DNA of 34,135 bases from contig JBBPSI010000250.1 of NCBI GenBank assembly GCA_038093515.1, positions 1 to 34,135 of the forward strand. Direction: 5' to 3'. This stretch comes from Butyriboletus loyo (lineage: Eukaryota; Basidiomycota; Agaricomycetes; Boletales; Boletaceae). How positions within the stretch are numbered: position 1 is the first letter of the stretch; each line of letters opens with the position of its first letter. Made by a program: the position numbers and the translations under genes. The notes beneath the pieces were generated by a model that saw only the letters and a program-made list of their open reading frames with translations, had not been told where the DNA came from and ran no database searches. This document shows positions 9,479 through 33,503 of this stretch, in pieces.

Positions 9479-9503
9479 TATCTTCCAAATACCCTTCTTC
9501 CAC

Positions 9504-9720: not shown

Positions 9721-9840
9721 TACACATGGTGCACCACTCGACATTATAATGACTAAGAGACATGTGGAACGGGGTATATAATACAGAGGTTATGTGGAAC
9801 CAAATAGAACCATTAACACTACCCACTGCCCACACTCAAT

Positions 9841-14290: not shown

Positions 14291-14339
14291 TGCTTTGCAG
14301 GGTATAGGGTAAGCCTTATCCTACCTAATAATATTACCT

Positions 14340-15237
14340 GAGCACAATGGTCCATTGTGCAGTGACCTCAAAAGCCCTCCCTTTTTGCCCCTCCTCATGT
14401 TCTTAGCACACATGTGCATCAAAAATCAGCTACACACCTTAGAAAGCCTTGAATTCATGTTTCCCATATGAGGGCATGGTGCCATCAATATCAAAAGGGG
14501 CCCATTTTCAAGATCACCATGCCATCACTTCAAAGGTCCCTCTCTTCTTCCACTCCATCACATTCCTATCACATGTGCACACTAAACATCTTCCTTATAC
14601 TCCAAACATGACATTTCTGATACCAGGACATGGTGCATCATGAACAAATGGGGTCACACCATTATCCCATGATGCTATCACAATCAAAAAAAGGGACCAA
14701 TTTCATTCATGCATTTAGTACACATGTGCACTAAAGATCACATCAGCTGCATGCCTTGAAAATCCTTGAATTCATGCTTCTCACAATGGAGCATGGTGCA
14801 TGAATGCCAAAAGAGGGCCATATTCACAGTCTGGTACATGTTGATTTTACAGGAAACAGCAATGCAAAGCATCACAGGAGGAATCTGACCTTTATAATCA
14901 AAGAGTCATGGTGTAGGCATGCAAAAAGAGGTCCATACTACATGCTTGCCCTTGACTCACTGAGATACTCTGATTCCAAGGACAGAAGAACTCAGGGGAG
15001 TGTTTAACACACATGTGCACTAATCACACTTGGTGTTTCAAGAAACAAAACATGTGTTATGGAAGGGCATGGTGCAAGCATGGAAATTCCCATGTGTGGT
15101 AGCATGTAATGGATTCTAGACTGGCATGCTGTACTTAGCACACATGTGTATTAAAAATGGACAAACATATTCATTCCATAGGCATTTAGCCAGTCATACA
15201 TCATACAATATACATGTACATACACAAAACAACATGA
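14340..15237. repeat. Non-coding flank with five degenerate ACACATGTG palindromes and longer repeat units
   Basis: Palindrome-like cores occur at about 14405 (TTAGCACACATGTGCATC), 14570, 14715-14735 (TTAGTACACATGTGCACTAA), 15005 and 15133 (TTAGCACACATGTGTATTAA). Around them a longer unit recurs, for example CTTGAATTCATG followed by a block ending in AAAAGNGGGCC (14450 and 14766). No gene is seen. This is the 3' flank of the minus-strand gene that ends at 15238. Confidence 0.6.
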
Positions 15238-15664
15238 CTAGGGACTAGAGTCCATTGGCTCATCTTCATCATCCAAACCATCAGTCTTATCCATCTTATA
15301 CAACATGCTATCAACCCACTCTTTTACCAACTCCTTGATCATTACACTTGTGTCCAGGTGTTTCCCCCATGTCTTGTATAGCCAATTGGACAATGAAGCA
15401 TCTGTTGGATATTGGATTTGATTCTTGATCCAGAGTTGGAATGTTTCAGAGCTGGCTGTGTTGGGTGATAAAGTATCATGAATGGAAAACAATCCACAAA
15501 CAAGAATTGGCCAGGTAGTTTCTGGCAAAGAGGCAGGAATACTGAGGTAATTGAGGATAATGTCCCACTCTTCCTGACCATGCTCTGTATTGCTGCTAAC
15601 CTTGCTGCTTTTCAAGTGTGCCAACTTTGTCATAAGGTCATCCACATCAGCATCATCCTCAATA
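15238..15664 (-). pseudogene. C-terminal coding block of the large minus-strand gene
   Basis: The block reads HIEDDADVDDLMTKLAHLKS, NYLSIPASLPETTWPILVCG and NWLYKTWGKHLDTSVMIKEL, and ends in an acidic tail (GLDDEDEPMDSSP) at a TAG. It is free of lesions. Joining it to 16490-16550 by removing the LTR gives AKTPHIEDDADV with no frame change, showing that the LTR cut a coding exon. Confidence 0.75.
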
Positions 15665-15669
15665 TGTGG

Positions 15670-16489
15670 TGTTACACTGGTAGCGCACAATAGCTAGCAA
15701 GCGAGCACTTATAGGGGCTCGAGCCTAATGAGGAAACTAGCCGACTCGCGTAGACGACGCTATCGGGTGTCTTGCAAAGCAAGTGTCGGCGAGATCTTGT
15801 GTGGTGGCGACCAGACGAGATCGAGCAGGCTCTTATCGGCTTTATCGGCAAGAAGGGTATATTGCTAGATTACTATGCACTTGGTAGATGCGTAGAATTA
15901 GCTAAAGAGTCGGTACTTCTCTAAGTACTCGTATATATACTAGTGGGTATCGTGCACAGACCGAGCTGTGCGTGGCAGCGAAGGGCGGAGGGTTATGAGT
16001 CTGCTCGAGTCATAACGGCGAATGAGGGAGCGGCAAAGTGCCGGTAACGAGGGAGCCAAGCTCCGAGCAAGAAGGCGACATCGTCAACGAATGAGAAGGT
16101 CAGAAGGTGAAGTGACGATGTCCATGAGGTGAGCCCCACAGGGCGAAGGGTGCGCGAACGGCGGAGCCCTTGGATACGGGTCTCGACGCGAAGGTACTGA
16201 CGCGTCGTAATCTAGTCACGTGCTAGTCACGTGATGAACCAAATGTCATTGGATAAGAAAAGAGGGACGCGACAGCTCAGCTGTGGGTCCGGCCCGACGG
16301 GGCGACGAGACAGGGGCTATCTCAGTGTAGCGTCACTGAGACTCGCAGGAACGAGCGGGGAAGTGGATATCGTCCACTAGGCGACTGGGGAGCGGGCGAT
16401 GGGCGGCATCGCGAGACGGCGGGGGCGGCGGGGATGCGTGAGCGTGGGAAAACGAGTGGCGGGGTACGCTTAGGGGTAAAACTGTAACA
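15670..16489 (-). mobile_element. Solo LTR A, family 2 (820 bp), CpG-rich
   Basis: The ends are TGTTACACTGG...AACTGTAACA on the plus strand, with the 5-bp duplication TGTGG at 15665-15669 and 16490-16494. It is the reverse complement of LTRs B and C along its whole length. It keeps dozens of CpG sites (for example CGACTCGCGTAGACGACGC near 15740) that are TG or CA in the other copies. This marks it as the youngest or least methylated copy. On the minus strand a stem-loop (15953-15972) lies just before a TATATA motif (about 15930-15938). Confidence 0.92.
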
Positions 16490-16550
16490 TGTGGAGTCTT
16501 GGCACGGCCTGCCTCATCATTGAATCCAGATGCAGGAGTGCGACGCTTCT

Positions 16551-16611
16551 CTAAATGACAAATGTTTAGTACACATGTTTACTAAAAATAAGAATAAAAA
16601 GAAATGCATAC
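16551..16611 (-). repeat. Intron (61 nt) carrying the shared palindrome
   Basis: Minus-strand donor GTATGC and acceptor ATTTAG. The palindrome (core TAGTAAACATGTGTACTA on the minus strand) is centred at 16575, about 25 nt from the acceptor, and supplies TACTAAAC as a branch-point candidate. Confidence 0.75.
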
Positions 16612-17033
16612 CAGAAGAAGAACCTGCAGCCAAGTTGACTTGGGAGTCAGCTGCATTCATGCTGATAGATGGCATGTCAGTGGAGAGACAGATCCTTTGC
16701 CTGGTTGGTTTGGAGGTTTATTTCCCACATATTCAACTTCTGTATCAAGTGTTCTCCCTCTTTAATCTGATCAACTTCTTCCTGCAGTGTAAACTTGAGT
16801 GTTGATGTGTTTTGCAGTGAGGTGGACCCAGTGTTGTCCAACTCCTCTTCCTTGCGGCCCCTCCAATACTCTTGACTTTCATTAGCAGTGGCAAAAGTGA
16901 GCAATTCAAGATCCTTGCCAAGACCAAGAGCTGACATTGCTGCTGACATCTCACTGGATCTCAGAGGTTCGGTTAGGTTCCAAGTGGGGGCCTGGATATG
17001 CAAGGCTTACTTGTGCATCACAGATGCCAGTTC

Positions 17034-17097
17034 CTAATGGATGCAATTTTTAGTAAACATGTATACTAAAAATTCAATTAAAAAGAAAAAACCTTAC
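17034..17097 (-). repeat. Intron (64 nt) carrying the shared palindrome
   Basis: Minus-strand donor GTAAGG and acceptor CATTAG. The palindrome is centred at 17060 (ACATGT 17057-17062), 26 nt from the acceptor, with TACTAAAA in branch-point position. Confidence 0.75.
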
Positions 17098-17301
17098 CAT
17101 CAAAAATTGATGTGTGGCATACCGAATGCTGTTATCCAGCCATGGGCCCACAGGAGTCATGACACTTCTGATCTCATATTGTGAGACCAACTTGAGAATG
17201 GTTTCCACAGCATGTGCACCTCTGCTGGCCACTTGTAGAGCCAGCAAAGCACGCTCTGTGGCTGCTCCACTGGTTTCCCCTTTCTAGTCCTTTGGCATAT
17301 A

Positions 17302-17516
17302 CAGTGGCTCAAAAAACTGTCCACATGTTTGCATGTTTTACATTACATACCACTCAATGCAATAACCCCTGATCCTAACCCTAGGTGGTGGGTGTATGAA
17401 ATAAGGTACCCACTCCTGGCCTTCTATCGGCCCAGGAATCAGGTAATATAGATAAGGTTTGATGGAATGTCAGCTATTTTAAAATGATAGGTCATGTGGA
17501 CAGTTGTTTGACTTTA
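17302..17516 (+). repeat. Left terminal inverted repeat of Tc1/mariner element 2
   Basis: It pairs with 18676-18890. Both contain CCTAACCCTAGGTGGTGGGT and GGTTTGATGGAATG. Confidence 0.9.
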
Positions 17517-17662
17517 AGTTTTGATCACATATATTAGACCCTAGATGCTGTAATATCATTACATACATCCATAAAGGGTCCTATTATGTCACCTTTATAT
17601 GACTGAGTGTCAGCTAACATATATAAACCCCATCCTCCTATGTTTATTCTCTCACCATCATC

Positions 17663-18660
17663 ATGAAATCCATTTCAACCTTGCTAAGACGAAATATAAT
17701 CTCTCTCTCCTCTCTTGGCCTTTTAACTAGGCAGATTGCCTCCCAGACTGGCCTATAGAAGTCTACTGTGGCTAGGGTACTCCAAGAGATCCAACCTGAC
17801 AAGGAGAAGCTTCATGCTGGCCATCCTTCTAAGCTTACTCCTACCAACAAATGTGCTATTGTCCAGCAAATCATTACTGGCAAGGCCAAAAATGCAGTCC
17901 AGGCTACAAATTTCATCAATTCCATCATTGAACCTCCCATACCCTCACATACAGTGAGAAAAGACCTCAAGGAGGGTGCATTTAAAGGCTGTGATGAAGA
18001 AGAAGAAATGTCTTCTTCCAATCAGCCCTAGAAAAAGATGATTTGCCTTTGCTCTCAAGTATCAATAAGGACTGGAAGAGGATTATTTGGTCAGATGAGA
18101 CCAAAATAAATAGAATTGGGTCAGGTGGACAGGAGTGTATGTGTGGAAAAAGAAGAGAAAGGGCCTAACTGCCAGAGAGGTTAAGGTACAGTCAAGTTTG
18201 GAGCAAATTTCCTGATGGTATAGGGTTCAATTGAGTGGGGGCTTTAAGTGAGGTTGAGGGGAGGATGGATGGTGAACAGTATGTGTAAATTCTAGAGGAA
18301 GAATTGCTATAACACATGGAGAAATCTGGAATTTCTCAACATGATATCATTTTTCAGCAGAATAATAATCCCAAACATACCTCCAAAAGAGCCCAGAATT
18401 GGTTTGAGGAGCAAGGAATCAAGCTTCTGGATTGGCCTGCACAATCTCCAGACCTCAACCCCATTGAACACACTTGGAATCACCTCAAAAGATGTCTCTC
18501 AGCTTATAATAGTGCTTCTACAGGAGTTCATCAATTATGGAAAAGGGTGGTGGTAGAGTGGGGGAATATTTCTGTGGAACAGTGTCACAAATGGATAGAA
18601 AGCATGCCTAGAAGAGTTGAAGCAGTTATCAAGGGCAAGGGAGCTCATACCAAATACTAG
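17663..18660 (+). pseudogene. Tc1/mariner transposase, degenerate, second catalytic Asp replaced
   Basis: The start ATG at 17663 is in frame with the helix-turn-helix region (LGLLTRQIASQTGL, stop TAG 17756, KSTVARVLQEIQPDKEKLHA), then GHPSKLTPTNKCAIVQQI. A frameshift near 17985 and further lesions precede the first catalytic Asp (IIWSDETKINRIGS). The last open block (from 18316) carries FQQNNNPKHTSKRA, where the family normally has an Asp, so the second catalytic residue is changed to Asn. WPAQSPDLNPIEHTWNHL holds the last acidic residue, and the protein ends GKGAHTKY at 18660. Length would be about 330 residues. It cannot be active. Confidence 0.9.
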
Positions 18661-18675
18661 ATAGTTGGATTTTTG

Positions 18676-18890
18676 TAAAGTCAAACAACTGTCCTCATGA
18701 CCTGTCATTTTAAAATAGCTGGCATTCCATCAAACCTTATCTATATTACCTGATTCCTGAGCCAATAGAAGGCCAGTAGTGTGTACCTCATTTCATACAC
18801 CCACCACCTAGGGTTAGGATCAGGGGTTATTGCATTGAGTGATATTTAATGTAAAACATGCAAACATGCAGACAGTTTTTTGAGCCACTG
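18676..18890 (-). repeat. Right terminal inverted repeat of Tc1/mariner element 2
   Basis: Reverse complement of 17302-17516 with about fifteen differences, ending GAGCCACTG against TA. Confidence 0.9.
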
Positions 18891-19671
18891 TATTTGAGCA
18901 AATTGGTATTGGTCAACCTTGGCTGCTTTGGGTATTTTTTCTCATCCCAACCTGACCATGTGTCATGAAAGGGGGTATCCACAAGATGTAGTTGAACACA
19001 TTCCAGAAGTTCCTTGCACAAGTTCCAGATTAGTGGCAGGGATAGGATGTCAGAATATGTTTCCAAGTGTTGTGCATCAATGAGTGCATGAGTTATAAAG
19101 GTGTTATGTGCACCAGTGTTTGGCAAGACTTCCCATTCCACAACACTAGCATGAACAACCTAATAAAGCAATTTGAACATGTCCTTTTGACCCTCTGTCA
19201 CACAACCTGTGAAAGCCTTGTTATAAATGCTGTTGCTGGCTTTGGGTCAAATGATGTTATGGGGCTTGTCATGTAGTTCCTTGTAGTAGTCAAGCAGAAA
19301 TGTCTGCAACACATTAATCCATTTGACATTGCCAACTGGCTCCATTAGCTGGCTGTTGAGTTGCCTAGCACTTTGGTGCCATCCTTTAGGGAAAATCTCG
19401 CTGAATACACCATGTAATGTGGTAATTGTGATGTGGTGATGAGACTAAAAGAATGAAATGATCTAATTAACTATTTGTTAGCTGCAAAACTGAGTTTTTA
19501 CAATCAGCAACTTATATTGGTGATAATGTCTTGACACTTTTTAGAATCCTTGATAGCTGCATGTTGATCCAGAAAGGCATCAATTGCAGTCCAGATACAA
19601 GTCCAATTCCTGCCCTCTTTACACTTTCCTTCCCAACCAAAGCAGCACATTGGAAAGATCCAATCAACACA

Positions 19672-19729
19672 CTAAACATAATGTTTTTAGCAAACATGTT
19701 TACTAAAAATCATAAGTAAATTAAATTAC
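19672..19729 (-). repeat. Intron (58 nt) carrying the shared palindrome
   Basis: Minus-strand donor GTAATT after CTAGCTGAG and acceptor TGTTTAG. The palindrome (TTAGTAAACATGTTTGCTAA on the minus strand) is centred at 19697, 25 nt from the acceptor. Confidence 0.75.
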
Positions 19730-19753
19730 CTCAGCTAGGGAAGGTCCATTATT

Positions 19754-20574
19754 TGTTACAATTTTACCCCTAAGCGTACCCCGCCACTCGTTTTCCCATG
19801 CTCACATGCCCCCGCTGCCCCCGCTGTCTTACAACACCACCCATTGCCCGCTCCCTAGTTGCCTAGTGGATGTCATCCACTTCCCCAGTCCTTCTGTGAG
19901 TCTCTGTGCTGCTACACTCAGATAGCCCCTATGTTATTGCCCCGTTGGGCTGGACCTACAGCTGAGCTGTTGTGTCTCCCTTTTCTTTATCCAATGACAT
20001 TTGGTTCATCACATGACTAGCATGTGACTAGATTACGACATGTCTTGACTAGCGTGCCGAGACCCGTATCCAAGGTCTCCGCTATTCACGTCCCCTTTGC
20101 CCTGTGGGCCCCACCTTGTGGACATTGTCACTTCGCATTCAGCACTTCTCATTTGTTGATGATGTCGCCACCTTACTCAGAGCTTCGCTCCCTTGTTACC
20201 GGCACTTTGCTGCTTCTCCTTTCGCTGTTATGACTTGACGCAACTCATAACCCCTTGCCCTTGCTGCCACACACAGCTCGGTCTGTGCACAACTATCTAT
20301 TAGTATATATACCAGTGTACTTAGCATAGTACAGCTTCCCTAGCTAATTCTATGCATCTACCAAGTGCCTAGCAATCTAGCTTATACCCATCCTCTGCCA
20401 ATAGAGCCAATAAGAGCCTGCTCAATCTCGTCTGGTTGCCACCACACGACATCTTGCCGACACTTGCTCTGCAGAAGCCTGATAGCGTCGTCTACGCGAG
20501 TCAGCATCTTCCCGATTAGGCTCGAGCCCCTATTCAAGCGCTCGCTGCTAGTTGTTTCGCACTCCAGCATAACA
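19754..20574 (+). mobile_element. Solo LTR B, family 2 (821 bp)
   Basis: It begins TGTTACAATTTTACCCC and ends CAGCATAACA, with the duplication TTATT at 19749-19753 and 20575-20579. It is inserted in an exon of the minus-strand gene in the orientation opposite to that gene. CpG content is intermediate between A and C. The stem-loop is at about 20272-20289 and TATATA at about 20303. Confidence 0.92.
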
Positions 20575-20826
20575 TTATTGATGGAGCTGTTTACTTGAGA
20601 GGTAGCAAGGACTGTGATTTGGTTTGTATTCCACAAGCTCATCAAGACTTGCATGCACAGTGTATTAAACAAAGGAAAAGGTGTTGCCAGTATAATACAG
20701 CTTTCACTAGTGGGGAAAAAGTCAAGTTGCAGCCATTTTAGTTTCGTCAGCATGTTTCAGATAACAGAAGCAGTGATGTCATGAACGTTGGACATGATGG
20801 AGTCTGCATGTTCCTCTGCCTCTTTG

Positions 20827-21703
20827 TGTTACAGTTTTACCCCTAAGCGTACCCTGCCACTCGTTTTTCCATGCTCACATGTCCCCACCGCCCCCACCGT
20901 CCTGCAATGCCACCCATTGCCTGCTCCCTAGTTGCTCATACATTCCCACTGCCCCAGTTATCTTGTGATGCCACCTATCGCCTGTTTCCTAGTCACCAGT
21001 GGATGCCATCCACTCCCCCAGTCCTTCTACAATGTCTCAGTACAGCAATACTGAGATAGCCCCTATGCTGTCACTCTGTCGGGCCGGACCTTCAGTTGAG
21101 CTGTTGCATTCCTCATTTCTTGACCAATGACATTTGTTACATCATGTGACTAGCATGTGATTAGATTACGATGTGTCTTCACCTACATGCTGAGACCTAT
21201 ATCCAAGGGCTCTGCTGTTCGCATCCCCTTTGCCCTGTGGACCCCACCTCGTGGACATCATCACTTTGTATTCCGCTCTTCTCATTCATTGATGATGTTG
21301 CCATCTTACTTGGAGCTTTGCTCCCTCGTTACTGGCACTTTGCTGCTTCTCACTTTGCTGTTATGACTCGAGTCAACTCATAACCCCCTGCCCCCACTGC
21401 CATGCACAGCTCGGTCTGTGCACAATATCTATTAGTATATATACATGTACTTAGAGTAGTATGAGTTCCCTAGCTAATTCTACACATCTACCAAGTGCCT
21501 AGCAATCTAGCAGTATACCCTTCCTGCCGATAGAGCCGATAAGAGCCTGCTTGATCTTGTCTGGTTGCCACCACACGACATCTCACTGACACTTGCTCTG
21601 CAGAAGCCCAATAGCATTGTCTACATGAGTCAGCATCCTTCCGATTAGGCCTGAGCCCCTATTTGACTGCTCACTGCTAGTTGTTTCGCATACCAGCGTA
21701 ACA
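20827..21703 (+). mobile_element. Solo LTR C, family 2 (877 bp), CpG-poor
   Basis: It begins TGTTACAGTTTTACCCC and ends CCAGCGTAACA, with the duplication CTTTG at 20822-20826 and 21704-21708. It has an extra partial repeat of the CCCACTGCCCC-type segment near 20940-20990, which explains its greater length. Most CpG sites seen in A are TG or CA here. Stem-loop 21403-21422 precedes TATATA at about 21433. Confidence 0.92.
21403..21422 (+). promoter_or_regulatory. LTR promoter stem-loop upstream of TATA
   Basis: TGCACAG, a six-base loop (CTCGGT) and CTGTGCA form a perfect 7-bp stem about 10-25 bp before TATATATA. The same arrangement is seen in the LTRs at 15953-15972 (minus), 20272-20289, 6123-6142 and, less perfectly, 3124-3144. 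It probably belongs to the LTR core promoter or its transcript leader. The function is inferred. Confidence 0.5.
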
Positions 21704-22084
21704 CTTTGATAATGTGATTGAAATACATGTCAAAGGCTGCTGAGTAGAACTCTATCTCACATGGCTCACTGGATCCAAATAGGTGCATAAAGGGTGACAA
21801 GAGTTCTGAAAAAGTATTTTCCCACTTGTCCAGGTAGCTTTCAGGGCCCCCTGACTCCAACACAGATAGCATTGGTTGGGAAATGGATCCAGCAAGAGTA
21901 TCCAGATTGTTCCTATATGCTTCCTCAATCTGTGAAACAACCTTTGCACACTCCTCAGCTGAGGTGCCAAGATTGGTGACAAGTCCCAAAATACATTGTG
22001 ATGCAGCTGCAGGGTCTTCCATTTGGTATGAAGATGTGAGATATTCAAAACAGACCACATTGGTTTGAATACGCAAAGAAACAG

Positions 22085-22150
22085 CTATGAAAAAATATTT
22101 TTAGTAAACATGTGTACTAAAAATCCAATTATTCATGTTGTCACATATAC
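22085..22150 (-). repeat. Intron (66 nt) carrying the shared palindrome
   Basis: Minus-strand donor GTATAT and acceptor TTCATAG. The palindrome is centred at 22111, 26 nt from the acceptor, with TACTAAAAAT toward the acceptor. Confidence 0.75.
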
Positions 22151-22501
22151 CAGTGAGATAGGGATTTAAATTCAATGCAGGAAGGGAAACATTGAGGAGA
22201 TTGCTGGATTCAAAGCTAACAATTTCAAAGACATGGGCAAACCAAAGTGTGAGGTCTTGATTCTGCAGGATAATGTTTGGACAAGATGTCTTGTTTGTAC
22301 ATGTCTCTCTCCAATCACTAACAAGACACTGGTAAGCATTCATGGCAAGAGGTTCTGTTGACCTGTTCCGATTCTGGCTGCATAAACAGTGTAGGAGATT
22401 CTTGAAGAGCTGGGTGTCGGAGTCCTCATGATGGGGCCAAAGTCAATTTGATGATAGCTTGAAGAAAATAAGACCAGCCTCATCTTGCTTTTTGATTTGG
22501 T

Positions 22502-22558
22502 CTGAGATATATATTTTTAGTAAACATGTTTACTAAAAATCAATTAAACTTTGTTTAC
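22502..22558 (-). repeat. Intron (57 nt) carrying the perfect palindrome
   Basis: Minus-strand donor GTAAAC and acceptor ATCTCAG. The core TAGTAAACATGTTTACTA is perfectly symmetric here and extends to five T and five A on the two sides. The centre is 22527, 25 nt from the acceptor. Confidence 0.75.
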
Positions 22559-23107
22559 CAAGATCAAAAACCACTGCGAGCCACACACCCTCTGTGTGCA
22601 GCAATGTCTCAAGTCTTTGGATTTTCTTCTCCAAGTCAGCACGAGCTCATGGGGTAGTGGCATCTTTTAACTCCTGATGGACCTCATTTCATTGCCAGAC
22701 TTCCTTTGCAAACTTGTCCTGCATCAAAGTGACATGGTGGTTTCCATTAATAAGTTCAATTGCTGAACCAGGGGATTGTGCAAGATCCGTCCATTTGATG
22801 TGATTGGTGTAAATCACAGCCTTACACTCTGGAACAAGCCCACCAGCAATATAGGATCGCTGGACACCAATTTGGATTGCCTGGTCAGCAACACAGTTGG
22901 CCAGCCCATCACTTTCTGCATCCCCCTTCATCAAATGTAGCAGTGTGGGGTCGATGGGATGAGGATTGTAGTTTTGGTGACTAAGGTGTGGTCCAATGCC
23001 AAGATTGTCATTATTGCCAACAAAGATGAGGCCAAATCCAAGGTGAACTTCAGAAAGGTTGTCAAGCATATCACTAAGCTTGCAATTTGCATCTTCCTGG
23101 CGATTCT
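22559..23107 (-). pseudogene. N-terminal exon of the large minus-strand gene, with INGNHH motif
   Basis: An intron acceptor (TTTATTTCAG) precedes NRQEDANCKLSDMLDNLSE. The exon continues through VHLGFGLIFVGNNDNLGIG, QRSYIAGGLVPECKAVIYTN, KWTDLAQSPGSAIELINGNH and VTLMQDKFAKEVWQ to a TGA at 22691-22689. It then goes on in the same frame (NEVHQELKDATTP, second TGA, ARADLEKKIQRLETLLHTEG) to a donor at 22558. The INGNHH box would be INGNHR if its last codon lost a CpG, as other Arg codons in this window appear to have done. ParB-like relationship is inference. Confidence 0.55.
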
Positions 23108-23160
23108 GAAATAAACTCATTAGTTGGTATATTAACCCAAATTAAGAAAGGAATCCGAAG

Positions 23161-23246
23161 TTTTTAGTAAATATGTTTACTAGAAATACACACAAAGCTT
23201 TCACAAAAGAATCCAGAGTTTTTAGTAAATATGTTTACTAAAAATA
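23161..23246. repeat. Two palindrome copies exactly 60 bp apart
   Basis: TTTTTAGTAAATATGTTTAC starts at 23161 and again at 23221, each preceded by GAATCC and AG. It looks like a local tandem duplication within the 5' intron or leader of the minus-strand gene. The central ACATGT is AATATGTT here, a one-base departure. Confidence 0.8.
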
Positions 23247-23432
23247 CAAATAACAATCAAATTTAGAATGAAAATACAAATCAATCACAATGCAATACAA
23301 AATAAAACCATGCAAATAAAGTGAATAATGCATACTTTGCCTTTGTTTGTCAACAAACAATGCAAAACCTGTAAGTTTTGCATATAGAATGTACAAACAG
23401 ATATATACTAATTTGGTTGTATTTGCAGGCAT

Positions 23433-23782
23433 TTGTATGGGACAAATAGCTGGAAATTAGAGAATAAAAGTTGATAGTGATGGTTGAGAGTCAAGGGGTA
23501 AAAATTGTTTCAATCCAGACATCAGGTTTATATACTGTGGGGAACACCTATTGGTATATACTTACCAACATTTGTGACTTGAGTTTAAACAGCACTCATC
23601 ACATAATCAAGTGTTTACTAATGTGATTATATAATCAGAATTAAGTTTAATGTTAGAGTTTACTTTACAATTGAAACTGAGCTTAAAATTACAAGTCTTC
23701 TTTGTGCTAATATAATCATTCATCTTGTTCTTCCATTCACTCCTTCCTATTTGGGTCATTCCATTATAAGAAATCCTTTCCC
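23433..23782. promoter_or_regulatory. Shared intergenic region between two divergent genes
   Basis: About 350 bp separates the proposed first exon of the minus-strand gene (ATG 23432) from the plus-strand start at 23783. It is AT-rich with no open frame and would hold both promoters. No specific box is claimed. Confidence 0.45.
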
Positions 23783-24087
23783 ATGATGTCTAAAGCTTCA
23801 GCCAAACAGCTTTTATTTGCTTTGTCAGCACAGCTTAGTAAAGATTTGGCAGGTGATCAAGCTTCTATCAGAGTAAGTTTGTAAAGCATTGGTTTATTCA
23901 ACATCAAGCTTATGTAATTCAGGTTGATAATCAAGCATGTGATATTGTGAGTCTTTAACATGCTTGCTTACTAAAAACATTCTTAGGTAATACCCCACAG
24001 CCACAGGATCAGGTCAGCTTTAGTATACATACATTTGTGAAAAATATTTTAATATCACTCAAGTCTGTTATGCAGCAGCACAATAAG

Positions 24088-24144
24088 GTAAGCTTTTTAG
24101 TACACATGTGTACTAAACATCCAACTTACAATCATACATCATAG
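24088..24144 (+). repeat. Plus-strand intron (57 nt) carrying the palindrome
   Basis: Donor GTAAGC, palindrome TTAGTACACATGTGTACTAA centred at 24107 (about 19 nt from the donor), acceptor CATCATAG. A separate CTTAC near 24125 could serve as the branch point. Confidence 0.7.
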
Positions 24145-24168
24145 ATTGCCATGAATACACATGATGAG

Positions 24169-24231
24169 GTAAGCTCTTTAGTACACATGTGTACTAAAAA
24201 TCATATTGCACAAGCAGAACAATAAGCCTCA
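24169..24231 (+). repeat. Plus-strand intron carrying the palindrome
   Basis: Donor GTAAGC at 24169 and palindrome TTAGTACACATGTGTACTAA centred at 24188, again 19 nt from the donor. The acceptor is ambiguous: AATAAG 24225, CCTCAG 24231 or TTGCAG 24247. Confidence 0.6.
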
Positions 24232-24334
24232 GACTTCTGGCTTGCAGGTCAAATACTTTATTATCTTTCAATACTTATGTTACTAAACTAAGCTGCTTGT
24301 GTAATTATAGACTGCCATCGAAGAACTCATTGAG

Positions 24335-24402
24335 GTATGATTCTTAATGATTCTTAGTATACATGTATACTAACAACTAACATGAAAATCATTTTAACAA
24401 GC
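24335..24402 (+). repeat. Plus-strand intron carrying a diverged palindrome
   Basis: Donor GTATGA, palindrome TTAGTATACATGTATACTAA centred at 24364, and acceptor probably AACAAG near 24402. Confidence 0.55.
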
Positions 24403-24600
24403 CTATGAGTTCTCTCTTCAAGGTAAAATATCTCTTCATGGCTAACCATATGTGCTATCAGTCTAATCAGAAGATTTAGCTAAATCAAATATTAGAAACA
24501 AATCAAGTACAGGACCCTGAGAAACTCAACATAGCTGTATGTTATTCTCTTTTTGTATTATTTGTGATTCTATGTTGATGGCATAACAAATGACTATAGG

Positions 24601-25036
24601 TATACAATCCAGATGATGGTCTACTCCATCAGCCTTATTTGGATTCTATCAATGTAGTGATAGATCCAGAGTTGCTTGCTTTCTGCTGCAACCTGTGTCA
24701 AATTGCTATGCCACCTTCCTGGATCCCAAATCATATCAACAACCATCACAAGAGCTTCAAAGTTAATATACATGCTCTTCAAGCAATCACTGATGCCAAT
24801 GACATTTGTGAAGACCTTCCACTTGAGGCAGTGACAAATAATGGTATTATACCATTTAAAGGACTGAAAATCTTACAGGGATTAGCTTGCCCCCAATGTC
24901 CACAAGTAGGCAGCACTATCAAATATCTGAAAAAACACCACATAGAAGCTCATCCCAATATGCTGTCTTCTTCAATCTGGCATGTATGCAAAATGCAACA
25001 ATTCAACAGTAGTGGTTGATATTGCAAATTATGGTG
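24601..25036 (+). pseudogene. OrsD-type zinc-binding domain block
   Basis: The frame starts VYNPDDGLLHQPYLDS after an acceptor at 24600. It shows a first Cys/His set (AFCCNLCQIAMPPSW, HINNHHKSF) and a second (GLACPQCPQVGSTIKYLKKH, IEAHP). This doubled C-x2-C...H...H arrangement is typical of the OrsD family (PF12013). The fold is presumed to bind zinc and nucleic acid. A TGA at 25017-25019 interrupts the frame, which then continues (YCKLWCVLEEPT). The natural residue at the stop is likely Arg (CGA). Confidence 0.7.
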
Positions 25037-25378
25037 TGTCCTTGAAGAACCAACTTCCACTGAGTCCAATCTGAACATAACTGATAACATTATTCAGAAT
25101 CTGTGCAATAGTGTTACAGAAACTCACAATAATTCCATGCCTCCAACTGATCAGCGACTTGTTAGCCCTTGGCTGTTAACCACCCAATGTCATGAACATA
25201 TTGCATGCTATGATGTTTCAAAATTGCATGCCCTTATTGCAATCAAGAAAAATGAAAATGGTTACATGTCAAGAGTATCAGCTGCTGTTTTGGATTATTT
25301 CAATGAGGCCATTGCTTTACTGCCAGCTACAGATGAGCTCATTCTAAAAAGACTCAACTCCAAAGATCCACAAAAGCA

Positions 25379-25431
25379 GTGAGTGGTTTCTACACACATG
25401 TATTAAAAATTAACCTTTAATAAACATATAG
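25379..25431 (+). repeat. Plus-strand intron (53 nt) with a degenerate palindrome
   Basis: Donor GTGAGT and acceptor ACATATAG. Splicing joins DPQKH to GINNTPLHCHQDHNTMKKYA in frame. The palindrome relic ACACACATGTATTAAAAAT is centred near 25399, about 20 nt from the donor, as in the other plus-strand introns. Confidence 0.65.
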
Positions 25432-26319
25432 TGGAATCAATAATACACCATTGCATTGTCATCAAGATCACAATACAATGAAGAAATATGCTGAACCTGT
25501 GACCTTCTTGCTTATATTTTTAATCCATGTTCAGAACAGTACAGATTATATGATTCCATTGGCAGGGGATATCACACACAAGATCAAAGCCTTACAAAGT
25601 GCTCTTCAATCCATGCTGTTCTGTCTGGAATATGGCTTACTAAATGGAAGAAGATACTCACCAATCCATTCCCATGTCCAACAGAACATCTGCTCATTAT
25701 TCTTACACTACAAAGTGATGGAAGTCACAAACCACCCAGTGAAGTTACTGGATATTTTGCCAAACTAGAATATTGTATTCGCTTGACATGTCTCAAGGAG
25801 ATCAAGCAGATTACATCTGAAAGGCTTAATGATAATGATGAAGATGCTTGCAATCAGCTCTCCCCTTGGTTCACTGAACATACAAATTCTCCATTTTCTC
25901 AACTCCAGTCTCTGCAGCATCATGCATCCTCCATTGCATATCAAACCATGAGTTTTCCACAGATCTGGTGGATTGATACAGAGCACTGGTCAGAACTTCT
26001 CTACAAGGGAGAGTGATTGTGTCTGGACCAATTACAAAGCATGTTTTCCTCAAATGCACAGGCTATTGTGGATCTCTGGAGGGTTAAAGTTCTTCAAGGA
26101 GTTAGTGCATGCATGCACTATGAATTTCTTGCAGATGATCTATCCAACAAGACTGTTGGCTACTCTTTTCTTACAGATCACCACAATTCCTATTTTAAAG
26201 AAGATCGGGACATCTTGGAAAAGCCCTTCTTTCCAATTCAGCAATTGCTTCCACATTTGGGAGTCACACAAGTTGAAAATGGATTTGGGATATCAGTGCA
26301 CTAAAGGGATGGCGATATG

Positions 26320-26950
26320 ATTATGCTAATTTTCAAAGCCATTTGCTCTTATGTTGTGAAACTCTTAGCAGCACTCCTGGACATGGCACAGAACTTACTA
26401 GTCTATCATTTTGCAACATGAAATATTGACATCAGAACCTTGTCATGTTGGGCTCACACCTTGCTCTATTGTGATTCTATCAAAAAACAAGTGCACTTTC
26501 TGGCCAAGACAAATTAATTCCACATGGTCTTGATGCCCTTACATCTGAACTTATTATTCAATCACTAGCTATTGCCCAACCTTTTGCAGAGCTAGCAATT
26601 CATCTCTGCTTTCCCAGTCAATCAGGGGTCACTGCCCTCTATCACACCCAACTATTTATCAATGTGTCAAAGCTTTTCACCACAGATAATATCAGCAGCT
26701 CTCTCTCATGCCTTAGCCTGCAATATACCAATCTGAAGCTTACTGTTAACTCCTGGCAGCATATTAGCATTGCTTTCAAGCACAAACATGGTCAATTTGC
26801 AGAAGACTTAATAGATCTTGATGAAAACAATACAATTGATGCCTTGCAAGCTGGACACTCACATGCAACAGAAAATCAAATTTATGGTTTAAGCCCTGAT
26901 GCTCTGGCAGATGCCAGTGAAGATATTCTTCCCCTTTTCCTTGATGCTAG
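26320..26950 (+). pseudogene. Tyrosine-recombinase-like domain, catalytic residues decayed
   Basis: Motifs appear in the order of a tyrosine recombinase. A box-I-like GHGTELTSLSF at about 26376-26408 has His where the catalytic Arg is expected. QKTSALSGQDKLIPHGL is at the lysine-hairpin position. Box II (WQHISIAFK, 26753-26779) has Gln for the expected Arg. GHSHATENQIYGLS (26853-26894) has His to Tyr nine residues apart, the spacing of the GHS...Y nucleophile motif. The missing Arg codons are explained by CG to CA changes. TGA stops at 26408 and 26459 interrupt the domain. In the cell such an enzyme would cut and rejoin DNA at specific sites. The assignment rests on motif order alone. Confidence 0.5.
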
Positions 26951-27570
26951 CAAGCAATTGCAACTCATTTTGCATATCATACCAAGTGGTCACATTATTC
27001 CCTATTCTGAAATCCACACAAAACAATTCAAGGATTTCACAAACCTAGGAAAGTTGGGTGTCAAGTCAATCCAAACAATCAACAAACCATCCATACCACA
27101 TGCAGCTCCTCTCTCAGAAGACAAAATAGTGGACTCTATTGTTGCAAAACTTGGAAATGAGATATTTCCACATATAGAGTCACAGATCACAGCCAAGATT
27201 ATTGCTGCCCTTACACCCACAATCCAAGCTGTGATAACAAATGCACTCAAAAACATGCAAATACCAAAATCAGGAGTCAATACATCATGGAAAGAATCTA
27301 ATCTCATTCCAACACACAATAAAAAAATGACCACCAATGAAGAAGATCTTGATGAACTATATGATGATTTTCCTTCCAATGAAGAAAATCTCTATGGTCT
27401 ATACAATAATGTACCTGTTCAGGAAAATAGGCCTTATGAAGATAGCACAGCAAAAATAAATCCAGTGATCAATGCAGGTAAGAATTCTTGGTTATTTATA
27501 TTGGTTACATATTGATTTGGAATTCCAAAAGTTCCTACAATGCAAAACACAAGACATTCCATCACTTCTG

Positions 27571-27615
27571 GTAAATCCCTATCATGATTATTACATATGT
27601 GTACTAACAATATTA
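27571..27615 (+). repeat. Short plus-strand intron with a palindrome half-site
   Basis: Donor GTAAAT and acceptor ATATTAG. It contains ACATATGTGTACTAAC, keeping only the right arm, with a perfect TACTAAC branch point. Confidence 0.5.
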
Positions 27616-27835
27616 GAAAAATCCCCAAGAACATCCCCACCTCCCAATCACCATACTCCCAAGTCAGGTAATAAATATTATCTTATCATCAGATAAGAAA
27701 CCTACTCAATTAAAATTCTTCCAGCTTATAATCTATCAGTTACTGGTATCACACCACCACCAAATCAATTGGCCAAGAATCAAAGTATATACATACTACT
27801 CTCTGTGTTTGGCACATCCAGTATGGCTAACCATA

Positions 27836-28050
27836 TCTGTGATTCTCATTTCAGTGATGATTGATTGGGAAACAAAATCACTTCAAGTTCTGCAACAGGT
27901 TTTACACAATCCTATGGCAACATGGAAGTCTACACATCAGAATGATGCCATAGTTGCCATTGCAAAACATCAAACAGATGTCATTGCCTTGCTCAAAACT
28001 GGTGGTGGAAAATCAATGCTGGCAATTGTTCCCACCATACTATTTCAGTG
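27836..28050 (+). pseudogene. RecQ-like helicase, N-terminal part with Walker A
   Basis: The exon opens after CATTTCAG with DWETKSLQVLQQVLHN. A Q-motif-like WKSTHQNDAIVAIAKHQTDV is followed by motif I ALLKTGGGKSMLAIVPTILF (27985-28047). This order (Q motif, then TGGGKS) is that of RecQ-like superfamily 2 helicases. The frame is cut just after ILFQ by the non-LTR element. Confidence 0.75.
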
Positions 28051-28059
28051 CACATGACC

Positions 28060-29229
28060 TTAAGCCCAGATTGAGAAGAAGAAAGTGTCCCTGCCAAGCA
28101 GGACATGTTCTGGTTGAAATCGCTCAAGGTGATGAAAGGTGCATCTTTGTCAGAGTCTCTAATACTCTTAGATAGGTGTAGCAGGGCAGCCATGCCCTCT
28201 TTCCATGCCACATGAACGCTACCTCCAGAGGGGAGGTAGACACACACAAAGTGTGCAGGTCATCCAACTGCAGCAAATTTTGAGACTTTAACATAAAGAA
28301 GGTAATATACCCTGAAAGCATACCAACTTTATGGGGAACCATGTAGGAAGGTAGGTGGTCATCTACATAAAGTGCCATACCATGGAAACCCTCTTGCCAA
28401 GGCTTAACAAAAGAGCAGTACCTGGCAATATGCACAGGGTACTGACCTGTAGACACTAACATTTCCTGTAGTGCAGCTACAGCGACTCGGTTATATGATA
28501 GGTAGTCTGCTACCAACAACTTTCTGCTACCAACAACTTCTTTGAAGGAAGACCATTCACATTCAAAGTAAGGATAGAACCACCCTCAGACCTAGACCTT
28601 TTAACCAATTTTTCAACAGAGGTCGGTGTATCAATTCTATGATCTTTCCAGAACTGCCAAATCACAAAATGCCACCTATACATGACCCTAGGGTGCCAAT
28701 CTGGCTGGCACCACCCCAATTGCTGCAAGCAGCACACCATTGATGGAGTATGCTCTTGAGTCAAGTCCCTCAGTACTTGCACAACATGAGCACCCTCTTC
28801 CTTTCAAACCCATATATCAATCCTAGGATAAGCATTCTCAAACATAATCCTTTTAAGCTGACCCACAGTGTCCCTTGCCTCCTTTGTCATCATAAAGGCA
28901 AGTTCCTGCTATGCTTCATTGACTGTTGTATCTCCTGTGTTGAAGATAATCAATTGTACATAGTCTTTCAGCTTCAATTTAGTGTTGTAAGTATGCATCA
29001 CTGTGCGTTTTGCATTCAATGGTTCGGGCCCACCACAGCCAACACTCTGCAGCAGGCTCAGGTCACTGGGAGAACCTGAAGAGACTGAACTGAGGGAGGA
29101 AGATATCCTCAGGGTGCTTGCTGTTTGAAATGTAGTAGCCATAGAATGAAGTAAAATGTTTACACCCCCTTCAACAACCTTTGGGATATCCAGAGCCAGG
29201 CCACTGAGCAGCAACCCAGCCCCATCCAA
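28060..29229 (-). pseudogene. Start of ORF2: endonuclease domain of the non-LTR element
   Basis: After a leader (MDGAGLLLSGLALDIPK; KEARDTVGQLKRIMFENAYP) comes SEGGSILTLNVNGLPSKKL, the N-V-N-G start of the endonuclease/exonuclease/phosphatase fold. YNRVAVAALQEMLVS follows at the position of the catalytic Glu, then FHGMALYVDDHLPS, and FITLSDFNQN, equivalent to the conserved G-D-F-N. Frame changes near 28510 and 28240 break it. In active elements this enzyme nicks the target DNA for target-primed reverse transcription. Confidence 0.6.
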
Positions 29230-29606
29230 CTGCCGGTCATTTCCAGAGGTGAAACCTGACTTGGGTTAGCCAAAAGAAGACAGTGCTCCCTCACATACGC
29301 CATGGAGAGCTTGTCAAAGCAGAGGCCCATGATCCATCCATTTGTCTCAATTAACCAAAAAGGAGTTGGTAAACTTGGAGGTGTACCGTTTCCTGAAACT
29401 TACCATGCCATACGCTTAGGCAACTTACAAAAACTCACAAGTTTCATTAACTTGTTTTTTAGCAGGACATGCAGAAGGTTCAAGGAGAGGGGATTTCATA
29501 CAAATGCGCAATGAAATACAAGTACATACATGGCATACAAAAACAAGCATTCAGAATATGCTATTCAGTTGTCAGATGGAAGAGGGGGTGTGGTGGTGAT
29601 ATCTGT

Positions 29607-31099
29607 TCACTTCTGGGCTTGCTTGCCCTTTCCTTTTCCACCACCAGCCTTTTGCTGGGACTGCTCCGAGCTGCTTGCCTGGAGCTGTCCACCACCCTGC
29701 TGTGGCCCTCCCTGCGTCTGTCCACCCTTCCCTTTACCTCTGTGCTTTCTCTTCTTCAATACGGTGGTGGCCATAGGTGCTTCCTTGGCTTTGTGCTTAC
29801 CTCCTTGAGGGGGCACTCCTCCAGGGGCCTTCAGCTTCTCTATGTCCGCCCTCAAAAGGGCCACTGCTTCCTTCAAACTTCTAACCTCTTTCTGCACATC
29901 CAACAGCACTGGGGTGTCCTTGTGTGACAGTCTACCATTTACAAAAGTGAGGGGGGACAATTGGGCATGGACCCTGACCTTGTTGATCGTGGTGACCAAC
30001 CTGCATTGAGTGTGCTCATGAAAGCCAGTCAGGCAAAGGGAGTTAGCAAGGTCCATACATAGTGACCACCTTGATCCCTCCAATTTCTTCCTCAAAGTTG
30101 CAGCGCTCCACCTTAGGGACAAGGAGGGCGCGAAGGTAGAAGTGCCTCAGAGGGAGATCCTGAGAGTTGACTACAGTCTCTTTAGCTGTCTAGTCCAACA
30201 GAACTAAAAAGAGATGCACATACCAGCCCTAAAAAAAGTGGTTCCTTGGTAATGGGCCGCCGCCCAGTCCACCAGATCCACACAATTGGGTTCAGAGACA
30301 AAACCCACCTCCCAGCAAACCGACAAGCCCTCCAAATAGCAATCTGAAAAAGTGCAGAGAGCCAACAGGGGCAGCCAAAACGCAGCCATTGAGCCAAAGA
30401 TGGTGTAATCAACACTAGTGTTACGAATCAAGGCTGCAGCCTCTGAGACCAGGTCTCCCTTTTTTTGTTTCAAGAAGGTAATGATGCCAAAGAGGTCCAG
30501 ATTGTCTGTGGCATCCTCCGACAGGTCTTTGGTGGAGAAGCTGCCTTCCCCTACTAGAGCATGGTATACATGGCACATGTTCACCAGCGCTGAGACGTTA
30601 CCCTTTGGGCCAAAGCACAAGTGTTGGAAAACCAATACTGCCTTAAGCTTCTCATTGGTAATGCCTGGGCCCAACATGTAAGTCCACAGGGCTTGGCTCC
30701 CAAAATCCACCACATTCTTTGCCTGTTTCTCCCACTTCTTGCCTGCATACTGTCTGGGTGCCGGAGTGCCACCTTCACCTTCTTCGGCCATCTCTTCATC
30801 CTCAGAGTCTGACCAATCATAGACGAGACTAACCCCAGTTAACCTAAGGGACCTGCATCCAATCCTATGACAAATACTCACAAAGTAGCATACCACCATT
30901 TGGTTGTGCCCACGCCCCATTCAATCACCTCGCTTGTGTTTTCGGCTTCCACCAGGTTAGTGTCACGAATGGGGGGTACTGGCACTGTGAAGTCACAGGC
31001 ACACTTTTTCCCTCTGCCTGCAGCACCACCTCTCGTGGAGGGCCCAGTGCTACCACTGCGACCATGACCATGCATGGGATTGAATCCTGTGGAAGACAT
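29607..31099 (-). pseudogene. ORF1/gag-like protein of the non-LTR element
   Basis: It begins at 31099 (MSSTGFNPMHGHGRSG, Gly/Arg-rich). A frame change or small intron near 30880-30830 leads to YDWSDSEDEEMAEEGEGG (acidic). A helical block follows (NVVDFGSQALWTYMLGPGIT, VLVFQHLCFGPKGNVSALVN, NLDLFGIITFLKQKKGDLVS). After a stop near 30204, further frames carry LRHFYLRALLVPKVERCNFE and a coiled-coil (DVQKEVRSLKEAVALLRADI). A Lys/Gly/Gln-rich basic tail (KGKGGQTQGGPQQGGG) ends at 29607. Acidic, helical, coiled-coil and basic segments suit a nucleic-acid-packaging ORF1, but no zinc knuckle is visible. Confidence 0.5.
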
Positions 31100-31499
31100 A
31101 TTTCAAGTAGAAAGTCTGAAATCCAAGGGTATCAGAAATGTCGCTAACAAGGGTTTTTAAGACAAGGAGAGACTTTCCCAGCCGAAGCTGAGAGGGGGGT
31201 CCAAAAATTATTTGTTGATGTATGCTAATGTGTATTCCCTGCTGAATAGTCCGAAATGGAGTGCCCACCTCCCACCACTGCCCCTCAGGAGCTCGCTCCA
31301 TACAAGGCCCCCCAACGTCTCTGTCGAACAGTTATCTCGAACAGATAAGAGACAATTCCAAGGTGAACCAAGATAGTCCCACTAATAACTAACCATCATA
31401 ACCAAAAGTCCAAAGTGTACCAGGGCAAAGTATCCAGTACAAGCCCCCAGACCAAAGTTCCCCAGTTGAACATTCCAACCCAACATGGGAGGCGGATTT

Positions 31500-32006
31500 A
31501 GCCTACTCTCCTCTGTGGTTATTCTACCACTTTGATCACTAATCCTGGATTGGCATTGCAAGCTTACAGAAATGAAAATCTCTCATCAGATCTTTGAGCC
31601 AAGTCAAAATCAAGGTTGATTAAATACTGCCATTAATCTGATTCTGATTTCTGCAGATAAAGCAAAACTTGAATCATGGCATGTAGCTCTTGCAGAGTTC
31701 CACCAAATCATCCCTATCACTTGAATGGTTTTTGATGAAGCACATATTGTTCTATTGGCATGCAACTGTCGGGATTCTCTACAACATGTCATTGAGCTTC
31801 ACCAATATGCTATTCAAGTCATTCTTCTTACAGGTACAATTCCACCTACAAGTGAGGCAGCTCTTAAAGATGCATTTGGAGTAATTCCAAACACAAGAAC
31901 AATCAGACAGTCTTGTAATCGACCTGAATTGGAATATGTTCAAGAATATTCTCTCATCTCATCTGCAATTTCAAACAAAGTTATGAGACCTTCTAGGTAT
32001 AGCTAG
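31500..32006 (+). pseudogene. RecQ-like helicase, middle part with DEAH box
   Basis: Coding resumes with SSVVILPL, a stop, then SLILDWHCKLTEMKISHQIF (the motif Ia region). ILISADKAKLESWHVAL and MVFDEAHIVLL (motif II, 31728-31760) come next, then VILLTGTIPPTSEAALKDAF (motif III, with TGT in place of SAT) and NRPELEYVQEYSLISSAISN. Stops are present in the motif Ia stretch, after NQNQG and before MVFDEAH. After NKV the sequence turns into the downstream repeat array, so motifs IV-VI are missing from the window. Confidence 0.75.
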
Positions 32007-32079
32007 GTTGCATATAAACCCTAGCATGGGGTTTGGTCTAACCCTAGAAATAAGGGTATACCTCCTGCTGTATCATATA

Positions 32080-33500: not shown

Positions 33501-33503
33501 CAG

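What the first reader, a model, noticed from the sequence alone, without database searches (positions are those of the whole stretch)
16551..25431. One palindrome family sits in introns of two divergent genes and offers a branch point on both strands
Seen: a symmetric motif (core TAGTAAACATGTTTACTA, flanked by T and A runs) lies in introns at 16551, 17034, 19672, 22085 and 22502 (minus gene) and at 24088, 24169, 24335 and, degenerate, 25379 (plus gene). Its centre is 24-26 nt from the acceptor in all five minus-strand introns and about 19-20 nt from the donor in three of four plus-strand introns. Each arm contains TACTAA, the branch-point consensus, so the motif works in either orientation. 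Such fixed spacing is unexpected for chance repeats. Possible explanations are introner-like elements, a binding site of a protein encoded by the unit, or a splicing device.
Basis: partly seen in the sequence, partly recalled or inferred. Interest (0 to 1): 0.82.

Follow-up and report, generated by a model that had tools for sequence, protein, structure and literature searches.

The report
Family-specific palindromes in fungal transposon introns
A kind of fungal mobile element carries its own 28-letter mirror-symmetric DNA sign, repeated in its introns and near one end, and related element families carry differently spelled signs, which looks like an address label read by the element's own protein.

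Summary
The 18-bp core occurs 11 times in the window at up to 3 mismatches (0.04 expected). Genome-wide (30.3 Mb), 51 of 54 sites of the shared pattern lie on copies or fragments of one element type; 3 lie elsewhere, as many as in the control. The element is a divergent gene pair: an OrsD zinc-finger/DEAD-helicase gene and a gene of unknown family. In the C191 copy the 17 palindromes sit in introns and the 3' flank, 0 of 17 in coding sequence. C191 belongs to a second family with palindromes in the same six introns but another spelling: 12 of 12 homologous half-sites differ at position 5 and 12 of 12 at position 11. A third, distant family has a different 28-bp palindrome without a branch-point sequence. 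This fits a binding site that co-evolves with an element-encoded dimeric protein better than introners or a branch-point device; the branch-point overlap in families A and B looks secondary. The nearest known analogue is VANC/VANDAL anti-silencing in Arabidopsis. The binder and its purpose are inferred, not shown.

The parts
15238..23386 (-). minus gene, no known family; exons interrupted by other TE insertions (15669-16500, 17296-18896, 19754-20577, 20827-21705)
   Evidence: exon-by-exon homology to C191:25945-30533; no Pfam or NCBIfam family above cut-off, no PDB match better than E 0.1; one relative found, P0001 of Pisolithus microcarpus. The start near 23386 is uncertain.
23783..31987 (+). 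plus gene: OrsD zinc-finger domain (24600-25019) and DEAD-type helicase pieces (27617-28057, 31514-31987), split by a ~3.5-kb insert 28047-31513 and truncated
   Evidence: OrsD above its cut-off; the window's helicase pieces alone are below the DEAD cut-off, the homologous C191 piece is above it; insert and end
14399..14426 (.). palindrome copy, 3' flank of minus gene (3 mismatches)
14711..14738 (.). palindrome copy, 3' flank of minus gene
15000..15027 (.). palindrome copy, 3' flank of minus gene (2 mismatches)
15131..15158 (.). palindrome copy, 3' flank of minus gene (2 mismatches)
16562..16589 (.). palindrome in minus-gene intron i8 (61 nt)
17046..17073 (.). palindrome in minus-gene intron i6 (64 nt)
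19683..19710 (.). palindrome in minus-gene intron i4 (58 nt)
22097..22124 (.). palindrome in minus-gene intron i3 (66 nt)
22513..22540 (.). palindrome in minus-gene intron i2 (57 nt); perfect core
24093..24120 (.). palindrome in plus-gene intron, centre 19 nt from donor
24174..24201 (.). palindrome in plus-gene intron, centre 19 nt from donor
24350..24377 (.). palindrome in plus-gene intron (88 nt), centre 29 nt from donor
25383..25410 (.). degenerate palindrome (5 mismatches) in a plus-gene intron; the homologous C191 intron carries the site centred at 24374

Best explanation
The palindromes are recognition sites for a DNA-binding protein that the mobile element itself encodes and that binds as a symmetric dimer, one subunit per half-site (family A: TGTKTACTAAAAA, family B: TGTKAACTAATCA, read outward from the centre). 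Sites are spread over the element where protein coding does not forbid them, that is in introns and in the array at one end. Site and protein diverge together, so each element family labels its own DNA. In short introns of families A and B the site overlaps the branch point (ACTAA) and has been fitted round the splice signals. SHOWN: the sites, their confinement to these elements, their non-coding location in C191, and the parallel change at homologous sites. INFERRED: that a protein binds them, that the element encodes it (the minus-gene product is my first candidate, the OrsD zinc-finger/helicase protein my second), that it is a dimer, and what binding is for. I think self-recognition along the whole element most likely, either keeping it from being silenced (VANC-like) or assembling the transposition complex.
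For: 1) Confinement. The 22-bp family-A word at <=3 mismatches: 15 sites, 15 of 15 in C250/C89 (backward control 1). The 26-bp family-B word at <=3: 33 of 33 in C191, C86, C128, C304, C175 (control 0). The 28-bp family-C word at <=3: 12 sites on C226, C191, C68, C83, C135 (control 0; 6 of the 12, on C226 and C191, went into making the word). The shared A/B pattern at <=2: 54 sites, 3 outside the element loci, equal to the control of 3 (50 are listed there, and the other 4 are accounted for by sites seen). 2) Location. 0 of 17 C191 sites in coding sequence, which is about 72% of that element; P about 3e-10 if placed at random; for the gene body alone 0 of 9, P about 1e-7 (coding limits partly by hand). 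3) Parallel change. At six homologous introns 12 of 12 half-sites are T in the window and A in C191 at position 5, and 12 of 12 are A and T at position 11 (for i1, which has two window sites, the one at 23231 was used). Different introns of one element are 0.92 identical over 28 bp, homologous introns of the two families 0.71-0.79, flanks 0.37-0.42 (introns i2, i3, i4, i6, i8). So sites within an element resemble each other more than their own orthologues, without the flanks being homogenised. 4) Half-site logic. In C191 the two halves vary independently (position 4 the same in 7 of 17, expected 8.1). 5) A third family at 24-27% protein identity has a different dyad 28-mer; one copy lies directly behind the donor of the interval that follows the exon matching exon 2, i.e. 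the place of intron i2. 6) Coding divergence between A and B is highest at third codon positions: 38/23/77 in 135 codons and 36/19/61 in 99 codons, so the genes were under selection.
Against: No binding or expression data. The binder is not identified: the minus protein has no recognised DNA-binding domain, and both structure predictions were of very low confidence (mean pLDDT 35.2 and 39.5). Between the two family-A copies the palindromes are not more conserved than their flanks (17 of 308 against 9 of 220 differences in 11 site pairs), as expected if these copies are dead but no support for present selection. In family A position 4 is symmetric more often than expected (21 of 26, expected 10.7), which pairing of strands would also give; C250 and C89 sites are not independent. 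A broken minus-gene fragment on C253, whose protein is close to that of C191 by eye, has no site at <=4 mismatches in the 10.5 kb held, its i2-like interval included. Not every intron has a site. No site at <=3 mismatches lies between the first-intron site of the minus gene and the first plus-gene site in window or C191, where a simple promoter regulator would be expected.
Confidence: 0.7

Rival explanations
1. Splicing device: the palindrome exists to give a branch point on either strand, or folds into a hairpin in the pre-mRNA that regulates splicing.
For: In families A and B the arms typically end in ACTAA; in ten short minus-gene introns (five each in window and C191) the branch A would lie 12-23 nt before the AG (in 9 of 10 the arm reads ACTAA, in window i4 GCTAA). 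Six introns folded singly show the palindrome as a 9-12-bp stem (z-scores -0.15 to -3.77).
Against: The same palindromes form arrays beyond the stop codon and at the element end. In 8 of 8 plus-gene introns examined the centre lies 18-29 nt from the donor, and in 7 of 8 the place of ACTAA is 24-49 nt from the AG (8 nt in the eighth). The family-C palindrome has no ACTAA. Mismatches between halves are not compensated in C191. A stem would bury the branch point. Two of eight C191 minus-gene introns, i5 and i7, have no palindrome.
Confidence: 0.08
2. Introner-like elements: small mobile introns that carried the palindrome into these genes.
For: Many similar introns in one gene pair; two neighbouring plus-gene introns look like a local duplication (copies at 24083 and 24164, 92% over 39 nt).
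Against: Identity stops at the palindrome (0.37-0.40 in flanks); no excess of sites elsewhere in the genome; six introns sit at the same positions in two families.
Confidence: 0.03
3. Site of a host factor (transcription or chromatin protein) that the element exploits.
For: Dispersed palindromic sites are typical of host regulators (general knowledge).
Against: No excess of sites elsewhere in 30.3 Mb; spelling differs between element families living in the same genome, even on the same contig (C191).
Confidence: 0.1
4. DNA-structure role: the palindrome extrudes a cruciform or hairpin used in transposition or replication, with sequence homogenised by palindrome-based conversion rather than by a protein.
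For: Excess symmetry at position 4 in family A (21 of 26, 10.7 expected); the two intron-1 copies in the window share a centre change absent from both C89 copies.
Against: A structure role would allow each copy its own sequence, but copies in a family share one spelling; copies in C191 are often asymmetric (10 of 17 differ between halves at position 4).
Confidence: 0.09

Closest known systems
VANC/VANDAL anti-silencing system of Arabidopsis (PMC5735166, PMC10398659; passages seen)
   Same: Short motifs of one TE family, in introns, intergenic and terminal non-coding regions; a related family has motifs at least two nucleotides different; motif and element-encoded protein evolve together.
   Different: VANC motifs are 8-9 bp, not called palindromic (the term 'palindrom' occurs 0 times in PMC5735166), and multiply as tandem repeats; here a 28-bp palindrome sits mostly once per intron at conserved positions. 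VANC and the minus protein were not compared. Demethylation is not shown here.
Subterminal transposase-binding motifs of plant DNA transposons such as En/Spm and Ac (recalled)
   Same: Repeated short sites near an element end, read by an element-encoded protein.
   Different: Here sites also run through internal introns of both genes, and the array has been found at one end only.
AcademH and KolobokH helicase-encoding transposons (PMC10799480, passages seen; the AcademH paper itself is not held)
   Same: A helicase-encoding, low-copy element in fungi.
   Different: No transposase domain above cut-off was found in what was scanned; the superfamily of this element is undetermined.
Introner elements and sequence-similar stwintrons (PMC8469720, search listing and abstract start only)
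   Same: Repeated similar sequence within introns of fungal genes.
   Different: Only the palindrome is shared, not the intron; no excess elsewhere in the genome.
Bacterial ParB-parS (recalled)
   Same: Palindromic site, homodimer; the minus protein has a conserved INGNH[RH]V[AT]L stretch that reminds of ParB-like proteins.
   Different: No profile, PDB or structure result supports homology.

Membership tests
VANC-type anti-silencing system | motif confined to non-coding parts of one TE family | tested here: met
   confinement; non-coding location tested for C191 only (0 of 17 coding)
VANC-type anti-silencing system | motif diverges with element family | tested here: met
VANC-type anti-silencing system | encoded protein belongs to the VANC family | not tested
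   no VANC sequence was compared; the minus protein matched no Pfam or NCBIfam model above cut-off
VANC-type anti-silencing system | protein binds the motif and removes silencing marks | not testable with these tools
   needs ChIP-seq, EMSA and methylation data
Introner elements | near-identical whole introns in many genes of the genome | tested here: not met
   flank identity 0.37-0.40; no excess of sites outside the elements
Introner elements | insertion into intronless sites with target duplication | tested here: inconclusive
   six palindrome introns share positions between two families, so they are not recent; target duplications were not examined
DNA transposon | defined shared terminus at several loci with differing flanks | tested here: met
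   five loci match the whole 187-bp family-B end; sequences part after GGATAG; the flanks of C128 and C175 are alike, so four different flanks in all
DNA transposon | both termini and target-site duplication | tested here: inconclusive
   only the array end was located; helicase-side end not found
Academ/AcademH or Helitron | superfamily transposase or Rep/Pif1 domains | tested here: inconclusive
   in what was scanned only OrsD, DEAD and ResIII passed their cut-offs; sub-threshold hits included DDE_Tnp_1_7 in a minus-gene exon, E 0.057; not every exon was scanned
ParB/sulfiredoxin fold | profile or fold match | tested here: inconclusive
   no ParB family listed by Pfam at E<=10 and none among PDB hits; fold models unusable

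The most novel reading that the evidence does not exclude
Fungal helicase elements have independently evolved a VANC-like self-labelling and anti-silencing system: an unknown element-encoded dimeric protein coats the element through 28-bp palindromes in its own introns and end, and the spelling changes site by site in concert with the protein, with the site merged into the splicing branch point so that one stretch of DNA serves both protein recognition and RNA splicing.
Probability: 0.33. Interest if true: 0.86.

Novelty: new variant of a known kind. Interest (0 to 1): 0.76.

Why it matters
Few examples are known to me in which a mobile element marks its own body with dispersed sites that co-evolve with its own protein. 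Here three families in one genome give a natural specificity experiment: the same intron positions, different spellings. That makes the question of how a protein and more than a dozen dispersed sites change specificity together directly testable, and it may reveal a new DNA-binding protein family and a fungal counterpart of plant anti-silencing.

Tried and rejected
Introner and branch-point readings were tested and set aside. RNA hairpin: folds of 6 introns contain the stem, but any palindrome does, and uncompensated mismatches in C191 and arrays beyond the stop codon argue against it. ParB/parS: suggested by eye from a GNH[RH]V motif; no support in Pfam, PDB search or structure prediction. 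Homologues: the first protein search used too short a piece and found nothing; the two later ones found only P0001 (6195 and 7875 candidates scored, so distant relatives may be missed). IMG/VR scan with P0001 found no relative. Structure prediction was run twice, both unusable, so no fold search was run. Literature: in the listings seen from 9 searches (several found more papers than were listed) I saw no description of this element or of family-specific palindromes in introns; the library lacks most subscription papers, and the AcademH paper is not held. Conservation between C250 and C89 gave no support for present-day selection on the palindromes. My first palindrome scans missed the family-C motif as a group in C226; it was seen only when reading the sequence and. 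One search also grouped two other repeated palindromes (C250 32292-32599, C191 9112-34499), not followed.

Dropped rows: 4-mismatch places were treated as chance or as broken sites, except C191:31665, which lies in the array; C89:84779, 85209 and 86418 and window 25397, disrupted or degenerate, were left out of the half-site counts; of 13 possible C250/C89 pairs 11 were compared; one weak exonic place (C89:87577, 3 mismatches; its window counterpart at 26111 has a different centre) was not counted as a family member.
Full report
OBSERVATION. With the pattern TTAGTNNACATGTNNACTAA the window has 14 sites at <=2 mismatches against 0.0 in Markov controls, and the paralogous contig C89 has 10.

THE CARRIER. 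The window is contig C250 of a 30.3-Mb genome. A collinear copy lies on C89, its matching segments 89-96% identical, and a more distant copy on C191 (49 and 55% protein identity for the two exons searched; 34-65% over the main segments). Each is a divergent gene pair. The plus gene has an OrsD zinc-finger domain and a DEAD helicase domain (above cut-off in C191; the broken window pieces are below it). The minus gene matches no Pfam or NCBIfam family above cut-off and no PDB chain better than E 0.1. The only hit in a database of 5.77 billion proteins is hypothetical protein PISMIDRAFT_9404 of Pisolithus microcarpus, so the host is probably an agaricomycete (inference). Copies are broken by other TE insertions and stop codons. 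Five loci match the whole 187-bp family-B end (C191, C175, C304, C128, C86) and part after GGATAG; two of the five flanks, C128 and C175, are alike. That marks a mobile element; the other end and a target duplication were not found.

WHERE THE SITES ARE. In C191 the minus-gene exons were traced by homology and, in part, by eye. Six of its eight introns carry a palindrome (i1, i2, i3, i4, i6, i8); i5 and i7 do not. The same six carry one in the window, and the i5 interval lacks one there too. Three C191 sites lie in plus-gene introns and eight beyond the minus-gene stop codon, in an array that runs towards the element's end. None of the 17 C191 sites is in coding sequence, although coding makes up about 72% of the element (limits approximate; for the gene body alone 0 of 9 with 83% coding). 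No site at <=3 mismatches lies between the first-intron site of the minus gene and the first plus-gene site in window or C191. Exceptions to note: a broken minus-gene fragment on C253 has no site at <=4 mismatches in the 10.5 kb held, and one weak exonic place lies at C89:87577 (3 mismatches).

CONCERTED SPELLING. Read outward from the centre, family A half-sites are TGT[G/T]TACTAAAAA[T/C], family B TGT[G/T]AACTAAT[C/A]A[T/C]. Position 5 is T in 47 of 52 family-A half-sites (26 sites of C250 and C89; the other 5 are C), and A in 34 of 34 of C191 and 26 of 26 of C86 and C128; position 11 is A in 37 of 52 and T in 34 of 34 and 26 of 26. At six homologous introns all 12 half-sites differ in just this way at both positions (of the two window sites in i1 the one at 23231 was used). 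Per site, 12 of 15 window sites have T on both sides at position 5 and none has an A, while 17 of 17 C191 sites have A on both. Different introns of one element (i2, i3, i4, i6, i8) are 0.92 identical over 28 bp but 0.37-0.40 in their flanks; homologous introns of the two families are 0.71-0.79 identical, flanks 0.42. Copying of larger units would have carried flanks along, so the simplest cause is selection on each site by a shared reader.

THIRD FAMILY. C226 holds a distant minus-gene relative (27%, 24%). It contains another dyad motif, TGCATGGYRACRTYRAYGTYRCCATGCA, at four places (617, 1677, 5199, 5612). The first two lie within GT..AG intervals by eye, the second directly behind the donor of the interval that follows the exon-2 match, the place of intron i2. 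Genome-wide at <=3 mismatches there are 12 sites and 0 in the control: C226 (4), C191 (2, near a second OrsD gene at 3762-4157), C68 (2), C83 (2) and C135 (2). The pattern was made from C226 and C191 sites, so the other 6 are the independent ones. C68 and C135 align with each other and with parts of C191:4088-7684. This palindrome has no ACTAA, so branch-point supply cannot be the common role.

CONFINEMENT. Of 54 sites of the shared A/B pattern genome-wide, 51 lie on the element copies or fragments and 3 elsewhere, equal to the control of 3 (one search lists 50; the other 4 are accounted for). Family-B 26-mers: 33 of 33 on C191, C86, C128, C304, C175, control 0. Family-A 22-mers: 15 of 15 on C250 and C89, control 1.

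HOW IT WORKS (INFERRED). A dimeric protein encoded by the element recognises its own family's palindrome. In C191 the halves vary independently at position 4 (7 of 17 the same, 8.1 expected), as expected for half-site recognition and not for base pairing; in family A there is an excess of symmetry (21 of 26, 10.7 expected) that I cannot fully explain, although copies there are not independent. In ten short minus-gene introns of families A and B the 3' arm would supply the branch point 12-23 nt before the AG; in eight of eight plus-gene introns the centre lies 18-29 nt from the donor, and in seven of eight the place of ACTAA is 24-49 nt from the AG. So splicing seems fitted to the site rather than the reverse. 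What binding achieves is open. [quoted passage not shown] PMC10398659, passages).

LIMITS. Gene models are by homology and splice-site reading, without RNA. The binder is not identified; the fold predictions failed. Family-A copies show no present excess conservation of the sites (17 of 308 against 9 of 220 in 11 pairs). All element data come from one genome.

Noticed in passing
C86 ~4165-5281, C128 72553-~73280, C304 19432-~19890, C175 52191-52766: Fragments of the family-B element that share one end and stop at different points on the other side (C175 runs to the contig end). The flanks of C128 and C175 are alike, these and the C86 flank recur further along on C304, and TTAGGG-type words lie near the C128 and C304 fragments, suggesting a subtelomeric setting.
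   Followed up: partly
window 17296-18896 and 8117-9722: Two elements with ~220-bp inverted ends (94 and 96% complementary); the first is inserted in the minus gene. The Tc1/mariner label is from recall of the protein motifs.
   Followed up: no
window 13440-14312: Minisatellite of ~80-bp units beside the 3' flank palindromes; related units lie at C86:3801-3971 and C191:18588-18635.
   Followed up: no
window 32069-32644 and 32810-33503: Tandem repeats with a CATCCAGGATGGCGAG-like core and AAAGTGTAGTAAA units.
   Followed up: no
C284:11653-11799 and 16748-16894: Two inverted copies of minus-gene exon 5 whose upstream edge falls, by eye, at about the dyad centre of the intron-i4 palindrome, as if broken there.
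   Followed up: partly
C191 ~18160-18560 and ~32050-32480: By eye, the same ~400-bp unit lies in the same orientation on both sides of the family-B element.
   Followed up: no
minus protein, window 22692-23105: Stretch INGNH[RH]V[AT]L is conserved with the Pisolithus protein and recalls ParB-like proteins; the family-B centre TTCACATGTGAA also recalls parS. No tool supports either.
   Followed up: partly
window 24087-24250 and C191:25380-25480: Tiny exons (12-24 nt, by eye) between two similar palindrome-bearing introns at the start of the plus gene, like a local exon-intron duplication in both families.
   Followed up: partly
window 15669-16500, 19754-20577, 20827-21705: Three related LTR-like repeats inserted in or beside the minus gene; more copies on C89 and C191. 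The LTR label is my reading, not a tool's.
   Followed up: no
window 28047-31513: About 3.5 kb inserted in the helicase domain of the plus gene, absent from C89.
   Followed up: no
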